NCBI RefSeq assembly: GCF_900130125.1
Contig: NZ_FQXY01000010.1
Coordinates: 1 to 64,000, forward strand
DNA from: Bacteroides congonensis
Lineage (GTDB): Bacteria; Bacteroidota; Bacteroidia; Bacteroidales; Bacteroidaceae
Length of the DNA: 64,000 bases
Direction: 5' to 3'
Below, piece by piece: positions 1 to 12,675 of the stretch. Made by a program: the position numbers and the translations under genes. The notes beneath the pieces are model-generated. The model was given only the letters and a program-made list of their open reading frames with translations. It ran no database searches and had not been told where the DNA came from. Within the stretch, counting starts at the first letter, position 1. Each line of letters starts with the position of its first letter.

Positions 1-959
1 GCATCGGTTTCTTCATGAGCCATCCGCTCCAGGTCATAATGATGTTTTTTAAGTAATTTCACCAGATAGGTAGGCGTGCCCGTTTCAAACCAATAACTGC
101 CGAACTCCTTGCGTTTGAAAGCATTAAGCAGGCTGAACGGATTGTACATACCTATAGAATTGTGTGTAAAATGGTAGCCGTCATAAGACTTTCTCAGTTC
201 CTCACAGAGTTCATCATACGTTATTCCTCGCGCTGCTGCAAATTCATGGAGTTCTGCTTCCAGATTTTCGTGGATTTCACGTTCACTGACACCACAAATT
301 TCGACATACTCATTCCACATTGAAATATCATCCAGATTGTTCAAGTCACTGAACACACTAATTTTGCCAAATTTTGTTACACCGGTAAGCAGGGCAAACT
401 TAATGCAACCGTCCTTCGTTTTGAGTGCTCCATAAAATGGCTTCAAGGTATTTCGGAATTGTTTTTGGAGCTCTTCATTACCAATGGCTTGCAGCATAGG
501 TTTGTCATACTCATCTACCAGAATAACTACACGTTGCCCCGTCTTTTCGCAAGCACGCTGAATGATACCGGCAAAGCGCAGAGAAAAGGATGTCTCGGAC
601 GGACGGGTACCATATTGGCTTTCCCAATATTCAAGGTTATCATTCAATATTTTATCCAGACTTTCCGGCGTATCATACTTCTCAATATTAAGATCCAGAT
701 GCAATATAGGATATTTTATCCAATCCTTTTCCAATTTCTCTACTGCCAGTCCTTCAAACAGTTCCTTTTTTCCTTGGAAGTAAGCCTCTAAGGTAGAGAT
801 GAGTAAACTCTTTCCGAAACGCCGCGGACGACTCAGGAAGTAATAGCTTCCGGTTTTTACCATTTGATACATCAATGCCGTTTTATCAATATAGAAATAA
901 CCGTCATTACGAATCTTTTCAAAATTCTGAATACCAATTGGATAAATTTTATTGCTCAT
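1..959 (-). CDS. AAA-ATPase-like / DUF1703 protein, 3' end outside window
   Basis: The start codon is at 957-959 and the reading frame stays open to base 1, so about 319 residues are visible and the C-terminus is missing. The N-terminus carries the 'YFYIDKT' and 'SRPRRFGKSLL' P-loop block (about residues 20-45) and a 'VVILVDEYDKP' Walker B-like block further on. These are the signatures of the AAA-ATPase_like family, which in Bacteroides usually ends in a DUF1703 PD-(D/E)XK nuclease-like domain; that domain would lie off the window. The family is present in many copies per genome and its cellular role is not settled. A -7 box (TATCTTTG) lies 36 nt upstream of the start. The large palindromic element at 1094-1785 sits immediately upstream and could influence its expression, but nothing here proves that. 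Confidence 0.85.
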   Translation of the reverse strand, partial: MSNKIYPIGIQNFEKIRNDGYFYIDKTALMYQMVKTGSYYFLSRPRRFGKSLLISTLEAYFQGKKELFEGLAVEKLEKDWIKYPILHLDLNIEKYDTPESLDKILNDNLEYWESQYGTRPSETSFSLRFAGIIQRACEKTGQRVVILVDEYDKPMLQAIGNEELQKQFRNTLKPFYGALKTKDGCIKFALLTGVTKFGKISVFSDLNNLDDISMWNEYVEICGVSEREIHENLEAELHEFAAARGITYDELCEELRKSYDGYHFTHNSIGMYNPFSLLNAFKRKEFGSYWFETGTPTYLVKLLKKHHYDLERMAHEETD

Positions 960-994
960 ATTCTATTCTTTTTATAACAAAGACACCTGTTATG

Positions 995-1002
995 CAAAGA
1001 TA
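995..1002 (-). promoter_or_regulatory. Bacteroides -7 box for the AAA-ATPase-like gene
   Basis: On the minus strand this reads TATCTTTG, a perfect TAnnTTTG box, 36 nt before the start codon at 959. No clear -33 TTTG is visible about 20 nt upstream. Confidence 0.55.
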
Positions 1003-1093
1003 GATATTTTTAAGAGAACTATTTCCCATAACAAGGTTAAAAGATTCTTTTCCGCAAAACGACACCAATTGCATGCCCACGCGTTTCTAGAAT

Positions 1094-1785
1094 AAAAAAA
1101 CAAAATCATTTCTCATATTCTCATAGGAAAGAATATTCATCTGATTACCAACCTCATATATTATGAGAATAAAATTATTTACATGTATTTCTCATGATTT
1201 TATCAAGAAAATACGCTTAAAATAATGCATTTCTCATCCTATTACCGGCATTTCTCATGCATCAAAAATAGTATTCTCATAGTCTGATCATCAAGGCTTA
1301 ATGAACTGTAGTAAAGCTACCGTTCATTTTCATTATAACTAGCTGACAGTCAAAGATTATGCTACTGTAATCAATAGATTTTCAATAAGACATCTCTATC
1401 GTTGTACTCTAGTAAACAGGCTCGTGCACTAGAGTGCACAGGTCTATCTACTCGAGTGCACCGGCCTGTTCACTGGAGTGGAATAATACGAATGAAGGCA
1501 GGAAAACACAATAATGTCTGTTATGAAAGACACGCCATCTGCCTACTCAACATACAAACTACGGCTATATTGACCCATACATATTAGTATCCTGAAACAA
1601 GGTCAAGCATAATATACAGCATGAGAAATGCGAAATAAAGTATGAGAAATACCTTCTTTGAAGGCACTTTACAGCTATAAACTATGAGAAATGCATGTAA
1701 ACATTTTAATTCTCATAGCCTATACATCTAATTATCAACCGAATACTATTCTCCATGAGAATATGAGAAATGATTTTGCTTTTTT
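1094..1785. repeat. Nested palindromic element: 165-nt inverted arms with TTTCTCAT motifs
   Basis: Arms 1094-1258 and 1621-1785 are inverted copies that align over 165 nt without a single gap. The outer 31 nt differ at one position only. The inner part is clearly diverged, yet the TTCTCAT/ATGAGAA heptamers stay at matching positions: the intervals between motifs are 37, 34 and 13 nt in both arms. About a dozen copies of the heptamer occur in the whole region. The axis of symmetry (1439.5) falls on the 22-bp-period array at 1406-1479, which is itself palindromic. No convincing gene is present in 960-2091. Function unknown; the pattern fits a protein-binding or structural site, or a decayed inverted duplication under motif-level selection. 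Confidence 0.75.
1406..1493. repeat. 22-bp tandem array of ACTNNAGT dyads (four units)
   Basis: The dyads ACTCTAGT, ACTAGAGT, ACTCGAGT and ACTGGAGT begin at 1406, 1428, 1450 and 1472, exactly 22 bp apart. The flanks of the middle copies extend the dyad (GTGC before, GCAC after the second). Linkers one and three are near inverse complements (11 of 14 positions), so the array as a whole is palindromic. A two-unit version with the same period is at 35161-35190. The period of about two helical turns would put the dyads on one face of DNA. Confidence 0.75.
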
Positions 1786-1885
1786 CGCATAGAGGGCGCG
1801 CGCTGAATTCGCTCAATAAATTCGATATCTTCTATATTTCTTATTTATAATTGCTAATATTCTTTCTTCTCTTTGTTTCTATTGC

Positions 1886-2023
1886 TATATTTGCTCCGTA
1901 TTATCTGACCACATTTTTAAAGCTCTAAAAAGAGCTTTCTTCTTGAGGAAGATTTCCCACATTTAATTAAGCATTCCCTACTAAGAGTACAGGATGGTTA
2001 AGATGATGAAACGAACATCCTGT
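1886..2023 (+). promoter_or_regulatory. Probable promoter and structured leader of the RluF-type gene
   Basis: TATATTTG at 1886-1893 matches the Bacteroides -7 box. Downstream, an 8-bp stem with a 4-nt loop (AAAGCTCT at 1919-1926, AGAGCTTT at 1931-1938) and a second 8-bp stem (ACAGGATG at 1989-1996, CATCCTGT at 2016-2023) lie in what would be a leader of nearly 200 nt before the ATG at 2092. The stems are seen directly; a regulatory role is inference. No known riboswitch class was recognised. Confidence 0.4.
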
Positions 2024-2091
2024 CGGCACATACACATAAGTGCAAATACAATGTTTGATGGACTATCGTAAATACATAAATAAAAATATAA

Positions 2092-3102
2092 ATGGAATAT
2101 AGACTGAACAGATACATCAGTGGATCAGGTTATTGCTCGCGAAGAGAGGCTGACCAGTTTATCAAAGACGGGCATGTAACCATCAATGGTAAACGTGCAA
2201 CTATCGGAATGCGCATATTGCCGGGTCAAAAAGTTGAAGTACGCGGAGAGCTTATAAAAAATGAGATTGAGCCCGTGTATATCGCATTTAACAAACCGGC
2301 AGGAGTCGTCAGCACAACAGATGTTTCTGACAGAAGCAATATTATCGAGTACATAAGTCACGAACAACGCATATTTCCTATCGGACGTCTGGATAAAGAC
2401 TCTCAGGGCTTAATCCTTCTTACGAACGATGGAGATATTGTCAACAAGATATTGCGCGTGGGCAACAATCATAAAAAGGAATATCTGGTAAGAGTAGACA
2501 GACCCATCACCAAAGAGTTTCTCACCAAGATGGCAGAGGGTGTTCCCATTCTGGACAGGGTAACCCGCCGTTGCGAAATCAAAGAAATCAATCCTTACAC
2601 CTTTCAGATTTCTTTGGTTCAAGGACTTAACCGTCAAATCCGCCGAATGTGCGAGTATTTTGACTATGAAGTGGTCAAGCTGGAACGCATCCAGATTATG
2701 AACATCAAATTAGGTAATCTGGGGCAAGGGAACTATAGGGATTTGGCTCCCGGAGAACTGGAAGAACTTTTTGACTTATTGAACAAGTCAAAAGATATAG
2801 TTCAAGCCAGGAAACCCGCCAATAGCAACAAGGCGATAAACAGAGCCTTGCAAGGGTATGACATAAAAACGAATTACCGCAAAGCCAATATTGTCTCCAA
2901 ACAAGCCCAAAAAGCAAAAGCTGACAAACCCTTGAGCACATCCACTGAGGGTATAGACAGAGAGCAAGTGAAGCTAGAGACGACGATAAAGAAGAAGAAA
3001 AAAGGAGGAAGCGGGCTTCGGGTTGGAAAGTCAAGAGTAGTAGAAAAGAAAACGCAGCCGCCCAAACAGAACTCACCGATCAGAAAAGGAAGAAAGGTTT
3101 GA
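2092..3102 (+). CDS. rluF: 23S rRNA pseudouridine synthase, RluF/RluB type
   Basis: Isomerises uridine to pseudouridine in 23S rRNA. An S4 RNA-binding domain occupies about residues 1-55 (pattern RLNRYIS..SRREAD..I..G.V.ING). The catalytic domain has the 'PIGRLDKDSQGL' motif with the nucleophilic aspartate at residue 101 and the 'GLNRQIRRMC' motif near 205. The hinge after the S4 domain and the short catalytic core resemble RluF of the RsuA family; RluB is the alternative. After about residue 235 a low-complexity Lys/Arg-rich tail of some 100 residues follows, common in Bacteroidales versions and probably disordered. The gene stands alone between a structured leader and a terminator hairpin. 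Confidence 0.88.
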   Translation: MEYRLNRYISGSGYCSRREADQFIKDGHVTINGKRATIGMRILPGQKVEVRGELIKNEIEPVYIAFNKPAGVVSTTDVSDRSNIIEYISHEQRIFPIGRLDKDSQGLILLTNDGDIVNKILRVGNNHKKEYLVRVDRPITKEFLTKMAEGVPILDRVTRRCEIKEINPYTFQISLVQGLNRQIRRMCEYFDYEVVKLERIQIMNIKLGNLGQGNYRDLAPGELEELFDLLNKSKDIVQARKPANSNKAINRALQGYDIKTNYRKANIVSKQAQKAKADKPLSTSTEGIDREQVKLETTIKKKKKGGSGLRVGKSRVVEKKTQPPKQNSPIRKGRKV

Positions 3103-3118
3103 TGCCGCATTGACATAC

Positions 3119-3168
3119 ATCCCCTCTTTGCCAGCACGGACGAATGGCAGATGAGGGGATTTTTTTTG
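3119..3168 (+). terminator. Rho-independent terminator after rluF
   Basis: An imperfect hairpin pairs 3119-3133 (ATCCCCTC...) with 3146-3160 (...GAGGGGAT) and is followed by eight T residues. Confidence 0.75.
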
Positions 3169-3252
3169 TTAAAACTATCGCAATCACGAAACAAAAGCAA
3201 CCGCAGTCTGTTACATAGGCAACTTAAACATAGTAACCTAAACATAAAAATT

Positions 3253-3765
3253 ATGGCTAGAGAAAGTGTAAAAATTCTACAAGGAAAACTAGATGTAGAA
3301 AGTTTGATCGCACAGTTGAACGCAGCATTAGCTGAAGAATGGTTGGCATACTATCAATATTGGGTAGGTGCATTAGTAGTGGAAGGTGCCATGCGTGCCG
3401 ATGTACAGGGTGAATTTGAGGAACATGCCGAAGAAGAGCGCAGACATGCGCAACTGCTCGCTGACCGTATCATCGAACTGGAAGGAGTTCCGGTGCTTGA
3501 CCCAAAACAATGGTTCGAGTTGGCAAGATGCAAATATGACGCTCCGCAAGGCTTCGATTCTGTCAGTTTGCTGAAAGATAACGTCGCTTCAGAACGCTGC
3601 GCAATCCTTCGTTATCAGGAAATTGCCGACTTTACCAACGGGAAAGATTTCACGACTTGTGACATCGCCAAACATATTCTTGCCGAAGAGGAAGAACATG
3701 AACAGGATTTACAAGATTACCTGACAGACATTGCCCGGATGAAGAAATCGTTCCTTGAAAAGTAA
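3253..3765 (+). CDS. Dps-like / bacterioferritin-related iron-binding protein
   Basis: A 170-residue four-helix ferritin-like protein, expected to oxidise and store iron and protect against oxidative stress. Candidate di-iron ligands are E28/E29, the EERRH block (E62, H65), E114 and the EEEEH block ending at H149. Cysteines at 93, 116 and 136 include one directly beside a ferroxidase ligand (SERC). Such cysteines are a hallmark of the DPS-like (DpsL) group known from Bacteroides fragilis and archaea. The ATG at 3253 is preferred over an in-frame start at 3151: it gives the family length, and the extra 34 residues overlap the upstream terminator and look non-homologous. Alternative call: bacterioferritin-like. 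Confidence 0.8.
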   Translation: MARESVKILQGKLDVESLIAQLNAALAEEWLAYYQYWVGALVVEGAMRADVQGEFEEHAEEERRHAQLLADRIIELEGVPVLDPKQWFELARCKYDAPQGFDSVSLLKDNVASERCAILRYQEIADFTNGKDFTTCDIAKHILAEEEEHEQDLQDYLTDIARMKKSFLEK

Positions 3766-3789
3766 ATTCTAATATAATAATGATTAGGT

Positions 3790-3828
3790 AAGAGAGGGTG
3801 TATCCTATAAGAGGATATTCCCTCTTTT
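3790..3828 (+). terminator. Terminator after the Dps-like gene
   Basis: Stem 3790-3806 pairs with 3812-3828 (AGAGGG... with ...CCCTCT, then TTTT), 25 nt past the stop codon. Confidence 0.7.
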
Positions 3829-3894
3829 ATCTATATAGTGCTATAAAAACAAAACTATTTTAGAGTAAATCAAGAAGAAATCTTTCTTTTTTCG

Positions 3895-3902
3895 TATTTT
3901 TG
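3895..3902 (+). promoter_or_regulatory. -7 box for metF-holB-ricT
   Basis: TATTTTTG matches TAnnTTTG and lies 52 nt before the metF start, right after a terminator. Confidence 0.6.
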
Positions 3903-3954
3903 TCCCAATATGCACGTTTAGTCCGACATAGATAACGAACATTAGCAAAAAAGA

Positions 3955-4908
3955 ATGAAAGTAATTGATTTAATACATAGCAACAAGAAAACTGCTTTTT
4001 CTTTCGAGATCCTTCCACCTCTGAAAGGAACGGGAATAGAAAAGTTATATCAGACAATTGATACGCTTCGGGAATTCGACCCGAAATATATCAATATCAC
4101 CACCCACCGCAGCGAATACGTTTATAAAGACCTCGGAGGCGGATTGTTTCAGAGAAACCGATTAAGAAGGCGTCCGGGAACGGTTGCCGTAGCCGCTGCC
4201 ATTCAGAATAAATACAATATCACGGTCGTTCCACATATTTTATGCAGCGGTTTCACACGCGAGGAAACGGAGTATGTGTTGCTCGACCTGCAATTTCTGA
4301 ATATCACGGAATTGCTGGTGTTGCGTGGCGACAAGGCGAAGCACGAATCAGTATTCACACCGGAAGGCGACGGATACCATCACGCTATCGAATTGCAGGA
4401 ACAAATCAATAATTTCAATAAAGGCATCTTTGTAGACGGTTCGGAAATGAAAGTCAGCAGTACTCCGTTCTCTTACGGGGTGGCCTGCTATCCGGAGAAG
4501 CACGAAGAAGCTCCGAATATCGAGACCGACCTTTACTGGTTGAAGAAAAAAGTGGAGAACGGGGCGGAATATGCCGTAACACAGTTGTTCTACGATAACA
4601 GGAAATATTTTGAATTTGTAGAGCAGGCGAAGGCGGCAGGTATCAATATACCGATCATTCCGGGAATCAAGCCGTTCAAAAAATTGTCCCAACTGAGCAT
4701 GATTCCAAAGACATTCAAGGTGGACTTGCCGGAAGACTTGGTGAAGGAAGCGTTGAAATGCAAGAACGACGCGGAAGCCGAGCAAGTAGGCATTGAATGG
4801 TGTGTAGCCCAGTGCAAGGAACTGATGGTTCACGGAGTGCCGAGTATTCATTTCTACTCTATCGGAGCAGTAGACAGTATCAAAGAAGTAGCCAAAATCA
4901 TTTATTGA
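3955..4908 (+). CDS. metF: 5,10-methylenetetrahydrofolate reductase
   Basis: A cytoplasmic flavoprotein that reduces 5,10-methylene-THF to 5-methyl-THF for methionine synthesis. At 317 residues it matches bacterial MetF. The N-terminal 'FSFEILPP' strand contains the catalytic Glu of the family, and the 'ITELLVLRGD' and 'QLFYDN' motifs (near residues 120 and 218) belong to the FAD/folate-binding TIM barrel. It has its own -7 box, and its stop codon is separated by a single base from holB, so the two are probably co-transcribed. Nothing about the gene is unusual. Confidence 0.95.
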   Translation: MKVIDLIHSNKKTAFSFEILPPLKGTGIEKLYQTIDTLREFDPKYINITTHRSEYVYKDLGGGLFQRNRLRRRPGTVAVAAAIQNKYNITVVPHILCSGFTREETEYVLLDLQFLNITELLVLRGDKAKHESVFTPEGDGYHHAIELQEQINNFNKGIFVDGSEMKVSSTPFSYGVACYPEKHEEAPNIETDLYWLKKKVENGAEYAVTQLFYDNRKYFEFVEQAKAAGINIPIIPGIKPFKKLSQLSMIPKTFKVDLPEDLVKEALKCKNDAEAEQVGIEWCVAQCKELMVHGVPSIHFYSIGAVDSIKEVAKIIY

Positions 4909-4909
4909 T

Positions 4910-6034
4910 ATGTTTTTCAGAGACGTAATCGGACAGGAAGAAATCAAGCAACGGCTTATTCAGGAAGTGAATGAGGGGCGTATTCCACATGCCCAGCTTA
5001 TCTGCGGCCCGGAAGGGGTCGGGAAAATGCCGCTGGCTATTGCTTATGCACGTTATATCAGTTGCACCAACCGGGGCGGGACTGATGCCTGCGGTGTGTG
5101 TCCGTCCTGCGTGAAATTCAATAAGCTGGTGCATCCGGACGTACATTTCGTATTCCCTATCGTGAAAAGCGCGAAGGGAAAGAAGGAAGTATGCGATGAT
5201 TATATTGCCGACTGGCGGCCGTTTGTCATCAATCATCCTTACTTTAACCTTAATCACTGGTTGGGTGAGATGGATGCCGAGAACTCACAGGCATTGATCT
5301 ATGCCAAGGAGAGTGATGAGATTCTGAAAAAACTGAGTCTGAAATCCAGTGAAGGGGGATTTAAGATTACGATTGTGTGGCTACCGGAAAAAATGCATCC
5401 GGTATGCGCCAATAAACTACTGAAATTGCTTGAAGAGCCACCGGAAAAGACGGTTTTCCTGTTGGTATCGGAAGCGCCGGATATGATTCTGCCTACTATC
5501 CTGAGCCGTACCCAACGCATGAATGTACGGAAAATCGACGAAACAAGCATCAACCGCGTATTGCAGACGAAATATAATATTTTGCCCGCCGACAGTGTTT
5601 CCATCGCCCACCTGGCAAACGGAAATTTCATCAAGGCGCTCGAGTCTATTCATCTGAATGAAGAGAACCAGTTGTTCTTTGAATTATTTGTCAGCCTGAT
5701 GCGGTTGTCTTATCAACGGAAGATCAGGGAGATGAAAATGTGGAGCGAACAAGTGGCGGGCATGGGGCGTGAACGCCAGAAGAATCTTCTGGAATATTGC
5801 CAGCGTATGATTCGGGAGAATTTCATCTTCAACCTGCATCAGCGCGACCTTACGTATATGACTATCAACGAACAGAATTTTGCAACCCGCTTTGCACCTT
5901 TTGTCAACGAACGGAATGTGATGGGCATCATGGACGAACTGAGCGAAGCGCAACTACATATAGAACAGAATGTAAATGCCAAAATGGTATTCTTCGACTT
6001 CTCGCTGAAGATGATTGTACTGTTGAAGCAATAA
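4910..6034 (+). CDS. holB: DNA polymerase III subunit delta prime
   Basis: Clamp-loader subunit of the replicative polymerase. It has an AAA+ N-terminal half with a P-loop-like segment (GPEGVGKM, residues 33-40) and a zinc-binding set of cysteines (C52, C61, C64, C67). The usual Ser/Thr after the P-loop Lys is Met here, which fits a delta prime that does not hydrolyse ATP. 'LSRTQRM' occupies the SRC position. Length 374. It lies between metF (1-bp gap) and ricT (14-bp gap), an arrangement in which holB and ricT (yaaT) are neighbours in many bacteria. Confidence 0.93.
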   Translation: MFFRDVIGQEEIKQRLIQEVNEGRIPHAQLICGPEGVGKMPLAIAYARYISCTNRGGTDACGVCPSCVKFNKLVHPDVHFVFPIVKSAKGKKEVCDDYIADWRPFVINHPYFNLNHWLGEMDAENSQALIYAKESDEILKKLSLKSSEGGFKITIVWLPEKMHPVCANKLLKLLEEPPEKTVFLLVSEAPDMILPTILSRTQRMNVRKIDETSINRVLQTKYNILPADSVSIAHLANGNFIKALESIHLNEENQLFFELFVSLMRLSYQRKIREMKMWSEQVAGMGRERQKNLLEYCQRMIRENFIFNLHQRDLTYMTINEQNFATRFAPFVNERNVMGIMDELSEAQLHIEQNVNAKMVFFDFSLKMIVLLKQ

Positions 6035-6048
6035 TAAATATATAAACT

Positions 6049-7557
6049 ATGGAATATAAACTTCATAATGGGAGCGGCGGCCTTTGCTGCAAAGGGTGCT
6101 CCCGACAAGATAAGAAACTGAACACCTACGATTGGCTGGCAGACATACCGGGCAACGCGGAAGAGAGTGACATGGTGGAGGTGCAGTTTAAGAATACCCG
6201 GAAGGGATATTACCGCAACAGCAATAAAATCAAACTGGAAAAGGGGGATATAGTTGCCGTTGAAGCTGCTCCGGGCCATGATATCGGTGTAGTAACGCTG
6301 ACAGGCAGACTGGTTCCGCTGCAAATGAAGAAAGCGAACTTCAAGGCGGATACGGAAGTCAAGCGTGTCTACCGGAAAGCCAAACCGGTGGATATGGAGA
6401 AATTCAACGAAGCCAAAGGTAAAGAACATGCTACGATGATTCGTGCGCGTCAGATTGCTTTGAATCTGAGCCTGAACATGAAAATCGGAGATGTGGAGTA
6501 TCAGGGAGACGGCAACAAGGCTATCTTCTATTATATCGCGGACGAACGTGTGGATTTCCGCCAACTGATTAAGGTATTGGCAGAGGCATTCCGTGTACGT
6601 ATCGAGATGAAGCAGATTGGCGCACGCCAGGAAGCGGGACGTATCGGCGGTATCGGCCCTTGCGGACGCGAGCTTTGCTGTGCCACATGGATGACGAGTT
6701 TCGTATCGGTATCTACCAGCGCAGCCCGTTATCAGGACATTTCACTGAATCCGCAGAAACTTGCCGGACAATGCGCGAAGCTGAAATGCTGCCTGAACTA
6801 TGAAGTGGACTGCTATGTGGAAGCTCAAAAACGCCTTCCTTCCAAGGAGATAGAATTGGAAACGAAGGATGGTACTTTCTATTTCTTCAAGGCGGATATT
6901 CTGAGCAATCAGATTTCTTATTCTACAGATAAGAGCTTCCCTGCTAATTTGGTTACGATTAGCGGTAAACGTGCTTTTGAGATTATCTCCATGAATAGAA
7001 AAGGGATGAAGCCGGACAGTCTGGTCGAAGAAGAGAAGAAGCCGGAACCGAAGAAGCCGGTAGACTTATTGGAACAGGAAAGCCTTACCCGCTTCGACCG
7101 CAACCGGAATAATAAGGATGGCGGAAACCGGAATAACAAGAAGAAGAAAAAAGGAAATAGCAACAATAACAACCGCCCGCAGCAACAGGCAGAGGGTGGA
7201 AACCGTCCGCAACAACCTCAACGGGAGAATGACAACCGTCCACAACCGTCAGAAAACGGAAACAGAGGGGAAAGGGAAAACCGACCGAGAAACAATAATA
7301 ATAACCGGAACAGGGGACAGAATCAAGGGCAGAACCAGGGACGGAATAACGACAACAGACGACCGGAACGCCCACAAGGACAAGAACGTCCGCAAAATCA
7401 GGAACGTCCGGAACGTCCGCAAGGTCAGGAGCGTCGTCCCAAACCGGAAAGACCGGAAAGATCCGAAAGACCGGAAAGAGAAAGACCTGAACGACCGGAA
7501 AGAAACCCAAATCAGGAGAAACCGCAGAATCATAATGAAAAGCCTTCTCAGGAATAG
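6049..7557 (+). CDS. ricT: PSP1-domain protein, RicT (YaaT) homologue
   Basis: About residues 1-300 form the PSP1/RicT domain, with the cysteine-rich blocks 'CCKGCSRQD' near the N-terminus, 'GPCGRELCC' near residue 205 and 'KLKCCLNYEVDC' near 245. In Bacillus, RicT with RicA and RicF carries Fe-S clusters and supports RNase Y and development; the Bacteroides role is not established. Residues from about 330 to 502 are a low-complexity, charged, Asn/Arg/Pro/Glu-rich tail with repeated RPERP and RPQGQE units, certainly disordered. The last 23 bases overlap gldH. Confidence 0.88.
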   Translation: MEYKLHNGSGGLCCKGCSRQDKKLNTYDWLADIPGNAEESDMVEVQFKNTRKGYYRNSNKIKLEKGDIVAVEAAPGHDIGVVTLTGRLVPLQMKKANFKADTEVKRVYRKAKPVDMEKFNEAKGKEHATMIRARQIALNLSLNMKIGDVEYQGDGNKAIFYYIADERVDFRQLIKVLAEAFRVRIEMKQIGARQEAGRIGGIGPCGRELCCATWMTSFVSVSTSAARYQDISLNPQKLAGQCAKLKCCLNYEVDCYVEAQKRLPSKEIELETKDGTFYFFKADILSNQISYSTDKSFPANLVTISGKRAFEIISMNRKGMKPDSLVEEEKKPEPKKPVDLLEQESLTRFDRNRNNKDGGNRNNKKKKKGNSNNNNRPQQQAEGGNRPQQPQRENDNRPQPSENGNRGERENRPRNNNNNRNRGQNQGQNQGRNNDNRRPERPQGQERPQNQERPERPQGQERRPKPERPERSERPERERPERPERNPNQEKPQNHNEKPSQE

Positions 7558-8023
7558 TTTATTTGGTCTGCTCACTGCCTGCATGGCAGTAGCCTGTAAC
7601 GACGAGAATACGATGTATCACTCTTACCAATCCCTTCCCGATGAAGGGTGGGGAAAGAGTGATACACTCTCTTTTCAGATTCCTGTCACGGATAGTATTC
7701 CCACGACTTTCCGGCTGTTTGCGGAAGTTCGCAACAGGACGGATTATCCGTATCATGACTTGCATTTATTTATCAGTCAGAATATGCCGGATTCTACAGT
7801 GTGGCATACGGATACTATCGCCATCACCCTGGCAGATTCTAGCGGCAGATGGACGGGAAAAGGATGGGGAAGCATTTATCAGTCGGAGACATTCGTTAAA
7901 TCCGTGCGAACTTTGCATCCGGGTAATTATACCATTAAGGTAATGCACGGGATGAAAGACAAGAGTCTGCAAGGAATGAATGACGTAGGAATACGGGTTG
8001 AAAAACAACACATAGATAATTAG
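7535..8023 (+). CDS. gldH: Gliding motility lipoprotein GldH
   Basis: A 162-residue lipoprotein: signal peptide and lipobox ending at the Cys of 'MAVACNDEN' (about residue 21), then the beta-rich GldH domain with 'LFAEVRNRTDYPYHDLHLFI' and 'WTGKGWGSIY'. GldH is needed for gliding in flavobacteria but is conserved in non-gliding Bacteroides, where it must do something else at the outer membrane. The ATG at 7535 lies inside the ricT tail and gives a proper signal peptide; a longer in-frame extension from 7118 is only the shifted reading of the ricT repeats. Its stop codon is nine bases from that of the convergent rodA. Confidence 0.88.
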   Translation: MKSLLRNSLFGLLTACMAVACNDENTMYHSYQSLPDEGWGKSDTLSFQIPVTDSIPTTFRLFAEVRNRTDYPYHDLHLFISQNMPDSTVWHTDTIAITLADSSGRWTGKGWGSIYQSETFVKSVRTLHPGNYTIKVMHGMKDKSLQGMNDVGIRVEKQHIDN

Positions 8024-8032
8024 AAGCTCTTT

Positions 8033-9490
8033 TTAAAGCCTTCTGCCCCGCCCTGCATCCAAACGCAGGAAAATAAACAGCAATATCGTAAAGCCCCACA
8101 AGGAAGACCCACCGTAACTGAAGAACGGCAATGGAATACCGATAACCGGTGTCAATCCCAACACCATACCGACATTAATAAACAGATGGAAGAGGAAAAT
8201 GCTGACGACAGAGTATCCATATACCCGCCCGAAAGTAGAGGGTTGTCGTTCGGACAAGAATATCAACCGTAAAATCAGAATCAGGAAGGCTATCAGGACA
8301 GCAGCCGAGCCGATAAATCCCTGCTCCTCTCCTACTGTACAGAAGATGAAGTCGGTATCTTGTTCGGGTACATACTTCAATTTGGTTTGCGTGCCGTTCA
8401 GGAAACCTTTTCCCGTCAGTCCGCCGGAACCAATGGCAATCTTGGACTGGTTCACGTTATATCCTGCTCCCGTCAAGTCTTCTTCCAAGCCCAGCACCAC
8501 CTTGATACGGATTTGCTGATGCGGTTCAAGTACATTATCAAAGACATAGTTACTGGAATAAAGGAATCCGATGGAGCCGATAGTGAACAAGGCGATTAAG
8601 AAGTAGGTGCGCTGACGCTCGCTCAATGCCAAATATATCAGATAGCCTACTACGACAGCACAAAGCCCCCATTGCACCCAAACCAGGCTGAAATGTACCC
8701 AGTATTCCGATACTAAGTAGGCGATTAATAATACACCCAGACTTCCGCCAATGATGTTGCGGGTAGGTACGGCTTTCTTACGATATACCCATACCATACC
8801 GCCGGCGAATAACAAAATCAAGAGTAATACGATAAATTCCCCCAATGGTGTGGGTGTGTCGGCAATGAACACTTCGTCGAAACGGATGCCGACTACGAAG
8901 TAGATTACCGCACAGACTCCGGCAAAAAGCACCACTCCCGGCATTCCTTCCCGGTAGAGAACCAAGAAAAAGGCGAGATATACCAAGGCAGAGCCTGTCT
9001 CCCGCTGACCGATAATCAATAACATCGGGAGAAGGATTATCACTCCCAAGACCAAGGCACACTTTTCCTTCTTGATGCTGAATGAGTAGGCGTTCATATA
9101 TTTGGCCAGCGCCAGGGCCGTGGCAAACTTGGCAAATTCGGCGGGTTGCAGGCTGACCGGGCCCATCACGAGCCAGGAACGGGAACCTTTCGTGTCCGGC
9201 GCAATAAAGATAGTGACGATAAGCAAGAGAATCATCCCTATATATATAATGTACGCGAACATATCATACATACGGTCTTCCAACATCAACAGCACAAATC
9301 CAAGTCCGAAGGAACAGATAATCCATACGAACTGTTTGCCGGCACGGGTAGAGAAATCGAGGAAGTCGCGTTCGCCATAATCATAGCTCGCCCCGCAGAC
9401 GCTAAACCATCCACCGACAATCAGGAGCAGGTAAATGCAAATCGTTACCCAGTCCAGTGTTTTCCACAAACTATCGTTCCTCGTTACCAT
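8033..9490 (-). CDS. rodA: Peptidoglycan glycosyltransferase RodA (SEDS family)
   Basis: Polytopic inner-membrane glycan polymerase of the rod complex. The 485-residue protein has about ten hydrophobic segments and SEDS signatures such as 'VGEEQGFIGS' and 'GLTPVIGIPLPFFSYGGSS' near the C-terminus; the family's catalytic Asp loop is in the large periplasmic region. It is somewhat longer than E. coli RodA because of an extra mid-protein membrane region. Its first 20 bases overlap the end of mrdA, implying coupled translation as the last gene of the purH-mre-mrd operon. Confidence 0.93.
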   Translation of the reverse strand: MVTRNDSLWKTLDWVTICIYLLLIVGGWFSVCGASYDYGERDFLDFSTRAGKQFVWIICSFGLGFVLLMLEDRMYDMFAYIIYIGMILLLIVTIFIAPDTKGSRSWLVMGPVSLQPAEFAKFATALALAKYMNAYSFSIKKEKCALVLGVIILLPMLLIIGQRETGSALVYLAFFLVLYREGMPGVVLFAGVCAVIYFVVGIRFDEVFIADTPTPLGEFIVLLLILLFAGGMVWVYRKKAVPTRNIIGGSLGVLLIAYLVSEYWVHFSLVWVQWGLCAVVVGYLIYLALSERQRTYFLIALFTIGSIGFLYSSNYVFDNVLEPHQQIRIKVVLGLEEDLTGAGYNVNQSKIAIGSGGLTGKGFLNGTQTKLKYVPEQDTDFIFCTVGEEQGFIGSAAVLIAFLILILRLIFLSERQPSTFGRVYGYSVVSIFLFHLFINVGMVLGLTPVIGIPLPFFSYGGSSLWGFTILLFIFLRLDAGRGRRL

Positions 9491-11333
9491 ACAATATCAC
9501 TCTGTTACTAAATTCTTCCGCTCTCAACTCGTTCTCCGGCGAGAGCTTGCCTTTCAAATACTGCTCCATCATCAGTGCCCCGAAAGGAACTCCGTATGTA
9601 GCACCCCATCCACCGTTCTCCACATAGACGGCGATAGCTATTTTCGGTTTGTTCATCGGCGCGAAGCCCATAAATACCGAGTGGTCGTGACCGCGATTCT
9701 GTGCCGTACCCGTTTTTCCACAGGCTTCCAAATCCGGAACCATCATGGAAAGCATTCGGCAAGTACCACCCGTAGCGGCGGCACGCATACCTTCCACCAC
9801 CGACTCGTAATGTCTTTTTTCGATAGTGGTATAGCGGGGAGTACGGTAGAGACTGTCTATCTGATTGTCCTGGATTTCCTTCACGATATGCGGTGTGACG
9901 AAATATCCCCTATTGGCTATCGTTGCTCCCAGGTTTGCTATCTGAAGCGGGGTGGACAGGATTTCTCCCTGACCGATGGAGATACTGATTACGGTCAGTC
10001 CGTTCCAGTGCCCGCGATAGGCTTTGTCATAGAATTGCGCGTTCGGGATTAACCCGCGTTTCTCACCCGGCAAATCGACTCCCAGTTTGTAGCCGAATCC
10101 TTGCGAAACCATATGGTCTTTCCAAACGGTGATGGCATTCTGCGGCGAACCGTACTTGCGGTCACCGAACATACGGAACAGCCCCCAACAGAAGTAGGAG
10201 TTGCACGATGTAGCGATGGCAGGTATCAACGGAATCGGTGCTCCGTGAGCATGGCAACCTACCGTCAGTCTGCCGTAATGAAAACCACGTGAACAAGGGA
10301 ATGTAGGGCTTTGCTCGGTGATGATTCCTTCCTGCAGGAAAGTCAAGCCTTGCGCTGTCTTGAAGGTAGAACCCGGCGGATAGACACCCATCAAAGCACG
10401 GTTCAGCAAGGGTTTCATCTTGTCGCGTTGCAACATCAGGTGGTTCTTACCCCGTTGACGGCCGATCATCAAATGCGGGTCATAGTTCGGCGAGGATACC
10501 AGGCAGAGGATTTCTCCGGTTTCGGGTTCGATGGCTACGATACTTCCGATTTTATTCTTCAGCAAACGTTCACCCAACATCTGCAAATCAATGTCCAGGC
10601 TTAGTGTCAGGTTCTTGCCGGGGACGGATGGACGGTCGTATTCACCATCCATATAATGCCCCTGAATACGGCCATGCGCATCACGGAGCAGGATTTCAAT
10701 TCCTTTCTCTCCGCGCAGGTACTTTTCATATGATTTCTCCACACCCAACTTTCCGACATAGTCACCACGGATATAGTATCCTTCTTCATCCGCTTCCATT
10801 TCTTTGGCGGAAACTTCTCCGATGTCACCCAAAGCATGTGCGGCGGCATTGTAAGAATATTGGCGGATGGTACGCCGCTGAATATAGAAGCCACGGAACT
10901 TGAACAGTTTTTCCTGAAAGACGCCACATTCTTCTGCCGAAAGCTGCGACATAAACAGTTGGTTGGTATAACGGGAATATCCCGGATTGCGGCGACGGTC
11001 TTTCATGTCGCTCATTATCTTCAGGAATTGGGCACGGGTGATGTTCAATGACTGGCACAGGTCGAGCGTGTCCAGATTCTCCACTTCTTTCGGAACAATC
11101 GAAATGTCATAGGCAGGCTGATTGAATACCAGCAGTTTGCCTGTACGGTCGTAGATAGCTCCGCGCGAGGGATATTGAATCTTATTCAGGAAAGCGTTGC
11201 TGTCGGCATTCTTTTTATAGTCGTCCGTCGTTATCTGCAACACGAAAAGCCGTATCAGATAAATGAGAACAATGGACAGGGCAATGCCGCCGATAACAAA
11301 TTTGCGCTTCTCTAATCTATAATCTTTTGCCAT
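9471..11333 (-). CDS. mrdA: Penicillin-binding protein 2 (transpeptidase)
   Basis: Class B PBP that cross-links peptidoglycan during elongation with RodA. One N-terminal membrane anchor (about residues 12-33) is followed by the dimerisation domain and a transpeptidase domain with all three motifs: SxxK at S322-K325 (PPGSTFK), SxN at S376-N378 (TSCNS) and KTG (ACGKTGTAQN). 620 residues. Two bases separate it from mreD and it overlaps rodA by 20 bases. Confidence 0.94.
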   Translation of the reverse strand: MAKDYRLEKRKFVIGGIALSIVLIYLIRLFVLQITTDDYKKNADSNAFLNKIQYPSRGAIYDRTGKLLVFNQPAYDISIVPKEVENLDTLDLCQSLNITRAQFLKIMSDMKDRRRNPGYSRYTNQLFMSQLSAEECGVFQEKLFKFRGFYIQRRTIRQYSYNAAAHALGDIGEVSAKEMEADEEGYYIRGDYVGKLGVEKSYEKYLRGEKGIEILLRDAHGRIQGHYMDGEYDRPSVPGKNLTLSLDIDLQMLGERLLKNKIGSIVAIEPETGEILCLVSSPNYDPHLMIGRQRGKNHLMLQRDKMKPLLNRALMGVYPPGSTFKTAQGLTFLQEGIITEQSPTFPCSRGFHYGRLTVGCHAHGAPIPLIPAIATSCNSYFCWGLFRMFGDRKYGSPQNAITVWKDHMVSQGFGYKLGVDLPGEKRGLIPNAQFYDKAYRGHWNGLTVISISIGQGEILSTPLQIANLGATIANRGYFVTPHIVKEIQDNQIDSLYRTPRYTTIEKRHYESVVEGMRAAATGGTCRMLSMMVPDLEACGKTGTAQNRGHDHSVFMGFAPMNKPKIAIAVYVENGGWGATYGVPFGALMMEQYLKGKLSPENELRAEEFSNRVILYGNEER

Positions 11334-11335
11334 CT

Positions 11336-11833
11336 TTACTTCCTTATACCTTCAACAGCCACAATACAAGTTACAGTCAGAATGGTGCAAAGTAACACCC
11401 GCAGCAGCAACAGCCAAATGCCGGAAAACGAGAAGAACTCAATGGAGAGTAATGCCAAACTATGCACAAAAACACTTGCAGTAGTATATTTAAGGAAAGG
11501 AGTGATTCCCATCGTCTTGAAAGAAGGAATGAAACTATCCAGGTTGTCACGGGGAGTAAACAGACGCAGCAGGGAAGGACGAAGGAAAGCGAGGAGCACG
11601 GTAGCAGCCGCATTCATCCCCGGAGTATCGGCAAACACGTCGATGGTGAGTCCGAAAAAGAAGGCCCACAGCATCAGTTCATTCCGCGAAGTGCCGGAGT
11701 TGAACTTCAGTATAAAGTAAATATAGAGAAAGGGAGTAGCGTATCCCGCTATATGTACGTTATTCAGGATAAGCACCTGAAGAAGTACCAGTCCGATAAA
11801 CCATCCGATTCTATGTATATAGGTGATAATCAT
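11336..11833 (-). CDS. mreD: Rod shape-determining protein MreD
   Basis: A 165-residue inner-membrane protein with about five hydrophobic segments, placed exactly where MreD is expected between mreC and mrdA. Sequence conservation of MreD is low, so position carries much of the call. The start overlaps the mreC stop by four bases (ATGA). Confidence 0.88.
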   Translation of the reverse strand: MIITYIHRIGWFIGLVLLQVLILNNVHIAGYATPFLYIYFILKFNSGTSRNELMLWAFFFGLTIDVFADTPGMNAAATVLLAFLRPSLLRLFTPRDNLDSFIPSFKTMGITPFLKYTTASVFVHSLALLSIEFFSFSGIWLLLLRVLLCTILTVTCIVAVEGIRK

Positions 11834-12675
11834 TCTTTTGTCGCCTTGTTTTCAAGTTTCTTCTGTTCCTCCTGACCGTTGCGCGCTACTACACGGACAT
11901 CACCGAGCTTGCCGAAATCGGTAGCCAGTTTTATCTTCAACAGGTAAGACAGCCCGTCGTTGGAGTCGGACATATCATCTACCGTACCCACCATAATACC
12001 TTCCGGGAATACGGTTGAGAAGCCACTGGTCACTACGGTATCTCCCAAATTAAATTCCGCGTGACGGGGCAGGTCTTTCAGATAGGCATAGCGCGAATCT
12101 CCATGCTCCCACTTCAGATAACCGAAGTAATCACTGCCTATAATCTTACAACTTATATTGGACTTGCTGTTCAATACGGAAATCACGACCGAATAAGAAG
12201 GAGACGTCTCGTACACAATACCTACAATTCCGTTGCCGTCTACCACTCCCATCTCGGGGCGGATGCCGGAAGAAGAACCTTTGTCAAGGGTTATGTAGTT
12301 ATCAGGCAGTGTCAAGCTGTTCTTTATCACATGCGCCTTGAACAGTTGATAATCATTCTGCGGCATCTGACGGATACTGTTGACAGTCACCGAATCGACC
12401 TGACGCTCTTTCAAGGCTTTCTCCAGATTCGTGATTTGCTGCTCAAGCAACATATTACGATCCAACAAGTCTTCATTGACCGATTTCAGATGAAAATAAG
12501 AGGTAATTCCTCCCGAAACTTCATAAACCGCCCCCACAACCGTATTGGCAGAAGTAAAATAAGTACTCTGCTGATAGCGGTTGAACCGAAATAACAAAAC
12601 AAAACTGGCTACCTCTAATATGATAAAGAGGAACCAGTAATTGTATTTCAGAAGGAAGTTTATTAAATTCCTCAT
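11830..12675 (-). CDS. mreC: Rod shape-determining protein MreC
   Basis: Bitopic membrane protein of the elongasome: membrane anchor (about residues 11-30), a coiled coil near residues 65-95, then the two beta domains with 'DKGSSSGIRPEMGVVDGNGIVG' and 'VVTSGFSTVFPEGIMVG'. 281 residues, the normal length. The polar C-terminus (EEQKKLENKATKE) is unremarkable. It is followed by mreD with a four-base overlap and preceded by mreB with a seven-base gap. Confidence 0.95.
   Translation of the reverse strand: MRNLINFLLKYNYWFLFIILEVASFVLLFRFNRYQQSTYFTSANTVVGAVYEVSGGITSYFHLKSVNEDLLDRNMLLEQQITNLEKALKERQVDSVTVNSIRQMPQNDYQLFKAHVIKNSLTLPDNYITLDKGSSSGIRPEMGVVDGNGIVGIVYETSPSYSVVISVLNSKSNISCKIIGSDYFGYLKWEHGDSRYAYLKDLPRHAEFNLGDTVVTSGFSTVFPEGIMVGTVDDMSDSNDGLSYLLKIKLATDFGKLGDVRVVARNGQEEQKKLENKATKE

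What the first reader, a model, noticed from the sequence alone, without database searches (positions are those of the whole stretch)
1094..1785. Gap-free 165-nt inverted arms that keep TTTCTCAT motifs while the rest diverges
Arms 1094-1258 and 1621-1785 match as inverted copies with no indel. The outer 31 nt differ at one position, the interior is strongly diverged, yet the TTCTCAT-type motifs are kept in both arms with identical intervals (37, 34, 13 nt). Neutral decay of an inverted duplication would be expected to erode motifs and add indels; this pattern argues for selection on motif spacing. It is not a gene, terminator or known riboswitch as far as I can see. It could be a multi-site operator, a site for a nucleoid or partition protein, or a template for a large RNA hairpin.
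Basis: partly seen in the sequence, partly recalled or inferred. Interest (0 to 1): 0.75.

Follow-up and report, generated by a model that had tools for sequence, protein, structure and literature searches.

The report
Gene-free copies of a DNA-binder locus
The stretch is one of several scattered copies, without the gene, of a Bacteroides locus that elsewhere encodes a histone-like DNA-binding protein of unknown role; its short repeated motifs are kept nearly unchanged and differ in step with that protein, which points to a protein-and-DNA-site system that I have not seen described.

Summary
Arms 1094-1258 and 1621-1785 align without gaps (117 of 165 identical); all six motif sites sit at identical offsets (42 of 42 motif positions identical, 75 of 123 elsewhere). 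They are the ends of a 706-bp element (about 1087-1792) with four CACTNNAGTG-type palindromes at 22-bp pitch in the middle. It is multi-copy. In a sister copy the interior holds a gene for a HU-HIG protein (PF18291).

That protein is the likely binder. Of 158 genomes, 14 have an exact outer signature and 13 of these hold the protein at 84% identity or more. Around its gene the motif is TTTCTCAT in 11 of 17 loci and TCTCTCAT in 6 of 17, never both. At five shared positions inner sites changed 1/287 against 146/2802 elsewhere, so sites are maintained in place.

HU-HIG genes in general carry their own four-palindrome array (22 of 26 long ones; 13 of 675 control ORFs, two of them HU-HIG), and arrays without such a gene are scattered in the genome. 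I read the element as a dispersed, gene-free binding cassette of a HU-HIG protein. Binding and function are inferred. A MITE moved by an unknown transposase is the main rival.

The parts
1087..1792 (.). whole gene-free element, from CTAG to the inverted CTA(TG) end
   Evidence: alignment with two 89-90% copies in the same genome; information content over aligned ends falls off outside this point
1094..1258 (+). left arm
1621..1785 (-). right arm, inverted
1110..1124 (+). left arm sites 1 and 2 (TTCTCAT A TTCTCAT), outer signature
1163..1169 (-). left arm site 3, inverted
1189..1195 (+). left arm site 4
1231..1237 (+). left arm site 5
1252..1258 (+). left arm site 6
1274..1280 (+). extra TTCTCAT outside the mirrored set
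1405..1414 (.). palindrome 1 TACTCTAGTA
1427..1436 (.). palindrome 2 CACTAGAGTG
1449..1458 (.). palindrome 3 TACTCGAGTG
1471..1480 (.). palindrome 4 CACTGGAGTG
   Evidence: array score 101 against a maximum of 75 in one shuffled window
1621..1627 (-). right arm site 6
1642..1648 (-). right arm site 5
1684..1690 (-). right arm site 4
1710..1716 (+). right arm site 3, inverted
1755..1769 (-). right arm sites 2 and 1
3..959 (-). neighbour gene, AAA-ATPase_like (PF09820), cut by the contig start
2092..3102 (+). neighbour gene, pseudouridine synthase (S4 + PseudoU_synth_2)

Best explanation
The element is a dispersed, gene-free copy of a HU-HIG locus: two inverted arms with six TTTCTCAT-type sites each, flanking four palindromes at 22-bp pitch. 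SHOWN: the same arms and array enclose a HU-HIG gene elsewhere in the genome; the arm motif differs in step with that protein across species; the sites are kept in place between species; many other HU-HIG genes carry their own arrays, and arrays without a HU-HIG gene exist. INFERRED: the HU-HIG protein binds both kinds of site (winged-helix-like C-terminus to TTTCTCAT, HU dimers to the palindromes) on one face of the DNA, draws the two arms together into a compact folded complex, and so represses its own gene at the HU-HIG locus and silences, insulates or anchors the chromosome at the gene-free copies. How copies spread is not known.
For: Two copies at 89-90% identity plus diverged ones in the genome; HU-HIG gene inside the arms of L011 and of 7 of 31 two-ended copies read. 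13 of 14 genomes with a 0-mismatch outer signature have the protein at >=84% identity, and 13 of 13 genomes with that protein have the signature, of 158 searched. TTTCTCAT at 11 loci, TCTCTCAT at 6, never both in the gene's own flanks (17 of 18 loci, one without a found start). In-place constraint 1/287 against 146/2802, p = 1.4e-5; 0.7% against 16.7% across nine copies. Generality: 11 of 14 long HU-HIG genes here and 11 of 12 elsewhere have an upstream array scoring >=80, against 13 of 675 ORFs, two of which are HU-HIG genes. Of 12 arrays away from a HU-HIG start, 6 match one HU-HIG array at 65-73% (next best at most 57%), the other six none above 50%.
Against: No binding data. The motif switch may be a single event on the tree. 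Gene-free copies do not always follow the resident protein: G059 (TTTCTCAT at its gene) holds elements with mostly or partly TCTCTCAT, G014 (TCTCTCAT) a mixed one and G156 (TCTCTCAT) one with TTTCTCAT only. The TCTCTCAT-type outer signature is found often in G046 (29 hits) but not at all in G014, G156 and G134, which have TCTCTCAT at the gene. Palindromes across nine copies are only somewhat better kept than the rest (10.8% against 15.1%). G065 has the signature once without the protein. 6 of 12 stray arrays match no HU-HIG array, and 14 of 28 HU-HIG genes of all lengths score below 80. In four of the five pairs only one flank is conserved. The structure model is poor (mean pLDDT 53). No gene set shared by the copies was found.
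Confidence: 0.6

Rival explanations
1. A MITE: a non-autonomous transposon whose arms are multi-site transposase-binding ends (as in Tn7- or Mu-like elements), moved by a transposase now absent or unrecognised; the HU-HIG gene is a passenger or accessory factor.
For: Dispersed copies with inverted ends and a boundary at CTA(G), mostly unrelated flanks; patchy species distribution; other IS genes lie inside some copies.
Against: Among 31 two-ended copies read, 7 hold the HU-HIG gene, 3 an IS transposase of three different families (ISAs1, IS1182, IS5-like) and 21 no ORF of 80 aa or more. The ISAs1 copy in L013 has its own short inverted ends and a 10-bp duplication; I did not look for own ends of the other two. 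No target-site duplication seen at the copies inspected by eye. Sites stay constrained after insertion, which a dead MITE would not show.
Confidence: 0.25
2. A transcribed large RNA hairpin or structured RNA: the arms are kept because they pair.
For: Folded as RNA the element is far more stable than 20 shuffles (z = -21). 13 of 106 non-site arm pairs show a double change that keeps pairing.
Against: 59 of 106 such pairs show a one-sided change and only 569 of 954 cells pair; five of the six sites inside one arm are direct repeats; any inverted layout of protein sites folds well; no Rfam match at gathering threshold in window 1-12000; the 22-bp pitch fits DNA helix phasing.
Confidence: 0.08
3. 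A MITE of the ISAs1 family, because one copy (L013) carries an ISAs1 transposase between its arms.
For: ISAs1 transposase at E = 1.3e-98 inside L013.
Against: Read by eye: the IS has its own ends CAGGGCAGACGCATTA and a CTCGAATGGA duplication that overlaps palindrome 4. The second ISAs1 gene of the genome, beside L011, also lies between ends of its own (by eye).
Confidence: 0.01

Closest known systems
HU-HIG family (Pfam PF18291; TIGR01201 HU_rel)
   Same: The gene inside sister copies matches PF18291 far over its cut-off; its TIGR01201 score is below that model's cut-off.
   Different: The family names returned by the scans say nothing of arrays or gene-free copies. A 2017 paper by Burroughs and colleagues on this superfamily is recalled only and was not held.
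Miniature inverted-repeat transposable elements (MITEs)
   Same: Short, gene-free, multi-copy, inverted ends.
   Different: No partner transposase found, no target duplication seen, motif differs in step with a DNA-binding protein, sites constrained after insertion.
Multi-site transposon ends (Tn7, Mu; recalled)
   Same: Several protein sites per end in mirrored order.
   Different: No such transposase gene seen in the copies read; ends do not begin TGT; central palindrome array.
Dispersed operators or parS-like sites of a DNA-binding protein (recalled)
   Same: Repeated specific sites scattered in the chromosome, with an array upstream of the gene itself.
   Different: Many HU-HIG paralogues each have an array sequence of their own; here sites come as a cassette of about 700 bp with arms.

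Membership tests
MITE | short, gene-free, multi-copy, inverted terminal repeats | tested here: met
MITE | target-site duplication | tested here: inconclusive
   none seen by eye in the copies inspected; copies are diverged and no clean empty site was found
MITE | autonomous partner sharing the ends | tested here: not met
   not seen among 31 two-ended copies; three hold IS genes of three different families, one of them shown nested; genomes were not searched exhaustively
ISAs1-derived MITE | shares the IS ends | tested here: not met
   by eye
HU-HIG locus (gene-bearing form) | arms and 4 x 22-bp palindromes around a HU-HIG gene | tested here: inconclusive
   met for L011 and its close relatives; the window copy has arms and array but lacks the gene
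HU-HIG binding site | binding by the protein | not testable with these tools
   only covariation and constraint
Rfam RNA families | match at gathering threshold | tested here: not met
   window 1-12000
ParB/parS partition site | known parS sequence and ParAB genes | not tested
   not examined

The most novel reading that the evidence does not exclude
Bacteroides chromosomes may carry a set of parallel, mutually distinct protein-DNA address systems: each of many HU-HIG paralogues has its own 22-bp-pitch palindrome array and, in some classes, its own arm motif, and gene-free cassettes of each class are placed around the chromosome and can replace each other at one position. They would act as specific folding, silencing or insulation stations.
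Probability: 0.3. Interest if true: 0.9.

Novelty: new variant of a known kind. Interest (0 to 1): 0.72.

Why it matters
HU-HIG proteins are numerous in Bacteroides (30 hits over the PF18291 cut-off in this genome, a few of which may be ordinary HU proteins, since the model also rings in E. coli and others), and I know of no tested function. Candidate binding sites for 14 of the 28 genes scanned here, with a natural specificity switch (TTTCTCAT / TCTCTCAT), make their role directly testable by gel shift and ChIP. If cassettes organise or silence chromosome regions, this would be a new layer of gene control in a dominant gut genus.

Tried and rejected
ISAs1 MITE: rejected after finding the IS in L013 nested, with its own ends and a 10-bp duplication (ends read by eye).

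Empty-site search for target duplications: no clean empty site. Instead, at three positions (those of the window, L108 and L110 elements) 4 of the 6 relatives' loci that I examined held another array scoring >=84 (L270 103, L292 85, L131 88, L268 118; L273 67 and L274 75 did not), against 15 of 246 background chunks of 3.5 kb (first seen by eye). For L131 the top-scoring array is a TATATTATATGTC-type repeat, not the GGGCTCAC-type palindromes that I saw by eye. Other flank matches were not examined.

Structure prediction from three close sequences gave mean pLDDT 53; I drew nothing from it and ran no fold search. C-terminal winged helix: HTH_24 E = 0.0066 for paralogue L042, DIP2311-like_C E = 1.4e-8 for L036, nothing significant for the L011 protein itself; PADLOC SoFic hit in the C-terminal part, E = 8e-4.

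First motif counts mishandled minus-strand loci and were redone. The array detector's threshold of 80 was set after a first run with 57 control ORFs.

Mobile records: no DNA match in phage records; one match of 15% coverage in a plasmid record of Bacteroides finegoldii whose neighbouring genes look chromosomal; the HU-HIG protein has relatives in 9 plasmid records (28-85% identity) and 4 phage records (27-44%), not followed up. 15 viral-contig stretches with one exact signature each were not examined.

Literature: ten searches, seen as listings only; no paper naming TIGR01201 or PF18291 is held; no paper was read.

Full report
What is there. Arms 1094-1258 and 1621-1785 are real, gap-free inverted copies (117 of 165 identical), with six TTCTCAT-type sites at the same offsets in both. 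They are the ends of a 706-bp element, about 1087-1792, between an AAA-ATPase_like gene (minus strand, cut by the contig start) and a pseudouridine synthase gene (plus strand). The middle holds four CACTNNAGTG-type palindromes at 22-bp pitch, array score 101 against a maximum of 75 in one shuffle of the window. No ORF above 61 aa lies inside, and Rfam gives nothing at gathering threshold.

It is multi-copy. The own genome (G000, unnamed) has two more full copies at 89-90% and several diverged or partial ones. The outer signature YATTTCTCATRTTCTCAT occurs there 12 times exactly and 4 more times with 1-2 mismatches, against 0 for the reversed control pattern. Over 78 dissimilar ends, about a dozen of which are single one-mismatch hits that are probably chance, the information content falls off outside CTA(G), 21 nt outside the signature. 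In 158 genomes of the genus 24 have a hit with up to one mismatch and 14 an exact one. A scan of named genomes gave 88 stretches, with B. acidifaciens, B. xylanisolvens, Bacteroides sp. GM023, B. finegoldii and an uncultured Bacteroides among them; its hits outside Bacteroides were not examined.

The gene inside. Copy L011 holds a 203-aa HU-HIG gene between the arms (PF18291, E = 2.8e-35), with the palindromes upstream of its start. Of 31 two-ended copies read, 7 hold this gene, 3 an IS transposase and 21 no ORF of 80 aa or more. The ISAs1 transposase in L013 belongs to an IS with its own short ends and a 10-bp duplication that overlaps the fourth palindrome: it is nested. L094 and L095 hold an IS1182 transposase and an IS5-like one, the latter below its cut-off; their own ends were not looked for. 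Copy L014 has a HU-HIG gene of another paralogue beside one such arm.

Motif and protein go together. The protein at 84% identity or more occurs in 13 genomes; these are 13 of the 14 genomes with an exact signature. The 14th, G065, has a single hit and no listed relative of the protein. Around the gene, 11 of 17 loci have TTTCTCAT and no TCTCTCAT, and 6 of 17 have TCTCTCAT and no TTTCTCAT. An 18th, G010, was dropped because no start was found; a second copy in G083 and a 64% relative in G155 were not looked at. In G046 the palindromes also change, to a CACCNNGGTG-like form, and G046 holds 29 hits of the TCTCTCAT-type outer signature. Other TCTCTCAT-type genomes have few or none (G010 4, G012 1, G083 1; G014, G156, G134 0). 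The two protein groups differ at a residue just before the presumed recognition helix (C or S against E, Q, G or H; alignment); that link is only a suggestion. Against a strict pairing: gene-free elements in G059, G014 and G156 are mixed or of the other type.

Constraint. In nine 708-nt copies arm sites differ in 22 of 3276 comparisons (0.7%), the rest of the arms in 1770 of 10568 (16.7%), palindromes in 156 of 1440 (10.8%), all other positions in 3132 of 20720 (15.1%). The copies include some at shared positions, and the outer two sites were used to find them, so the fairer test is on inner sites at five shared positions (L009/L117, L010/L118, L104/L114, L106/L115, L105/L116): 1 of 287 against 146 of 2802 elsewhere (p = 1.4e-5). 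Pairs were picked by a shared flank; in four of the five only one flank is conserved, so a later exchange of the element cannot be ruled out there. With that reserve, the sites are kept where they lie.

Generality. A detector for four similar, palindromic 14-nt units at 20-27 bp pitch finds arrays scoring at least 80 in the 350 bp upstream of 11 of 14 HU-HIG genes of 190 aa or more in G000 (14 of 28 of all lengths; two loci of the 30 over cut-off were not scanned) and of 11 of 12 in other genomes (some of these 12 are near-identical pairs). Pitch is exactly 22/22/22 in 10 of those 14 and 9 of those 11. Control ORFs give 13 of 675, two of which are HU-HIG genes themselves. In 864 kb of G000 (about 14% of the genome) 15 arrays with pitch 22/22/22 score at least 80 and 12 at least 86; maxima in one shuffle of each block are 75-83. 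Of 12 arrays away from a HU-HIG start, the window's included, 6 match one HU-HIG array at 65-73% and the other six none above 50%. Some have arms with a motif of their own: TGACAGCA, GTGCAAGATA, ATCTATCA; the last is also found at the matching HU-HIG gene L037.

Same place, different element. Upstream of the orthologous pseudouridine synthase gene, found in 2 of 12 relatives, G013 and G059 carry other elements of this kind. Over three positions 4 of 6 relatives' loci examined hold an array scoring at least 84, against 15 of 246 background chunks.

How it likely works. Shown: architecture, multi-copy nature, covariation, in-place constraint with the reserve above, arrays at many HU-HIG genes. 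Inferred: HU-HIG dimers bind the array on one DNA face and the winged-helix-like C-terminus binds the arm sites, folding the 700 bp into a closed complex; at the gene this would be autorepression, at gene-free copies silencing, insulation or anchoring. How copies spread is open.

Limits. No transcript or binding data. The structure model was too poor to use. The paper that I recall on HU-HIG proteins was not held, and the ten literature searches were read as listings only.

Noticed in passing
window 3-959; L013 351-941; G000 C10:123887-127078: AAA-ATPase_like (PF09820) genes lie near HU-HIG genes and elements more often than expected: within 3 kb for 5 of 30 HU-HIG genes (p = 0.0013) and 3 of 9 elements (p = 0.0016); one array lies between two such genes. 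A gene alike by eye lies beside the HU-HIG element of B. xylanisolvens (L206).
   Followed up: partly
flanks of element ends: ATTCAGC pointing at the element lies 9 to 28 nt outside 10 of 90 dissimilar ends. Unexplained.
   Followed up: partly
L009/L117, L010/L118, L104/L114, L105/L116: At these shared positions one flank of the element is conserved and the other is not, as if copies sit at rearrangement junctions.
   Followed up: no
G000 contigs C9 start, C11 start and C11 end: Contig ends lie at or near copies of this element or the neighbouring repeated AAA gene; the window start is such an end.
   Followed up: no
L016 3766-4200 and L014 2984-4010: A further class: one TTTCTCAT arm plus an array around ATGCAAGCTT at about 21-bp pitch; L014 has a HU-HIG gene, L016 does not. 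L016's position after an AMP-ligase-like gene (name recalled) appears shared with B. xylanisolvens (L141).
   Followed up: partly
L011 665-2170: Neighbour of the HU-HIG element is a BT4734-like/VapE-like protein with a PrimPol match.
   Followed up: no
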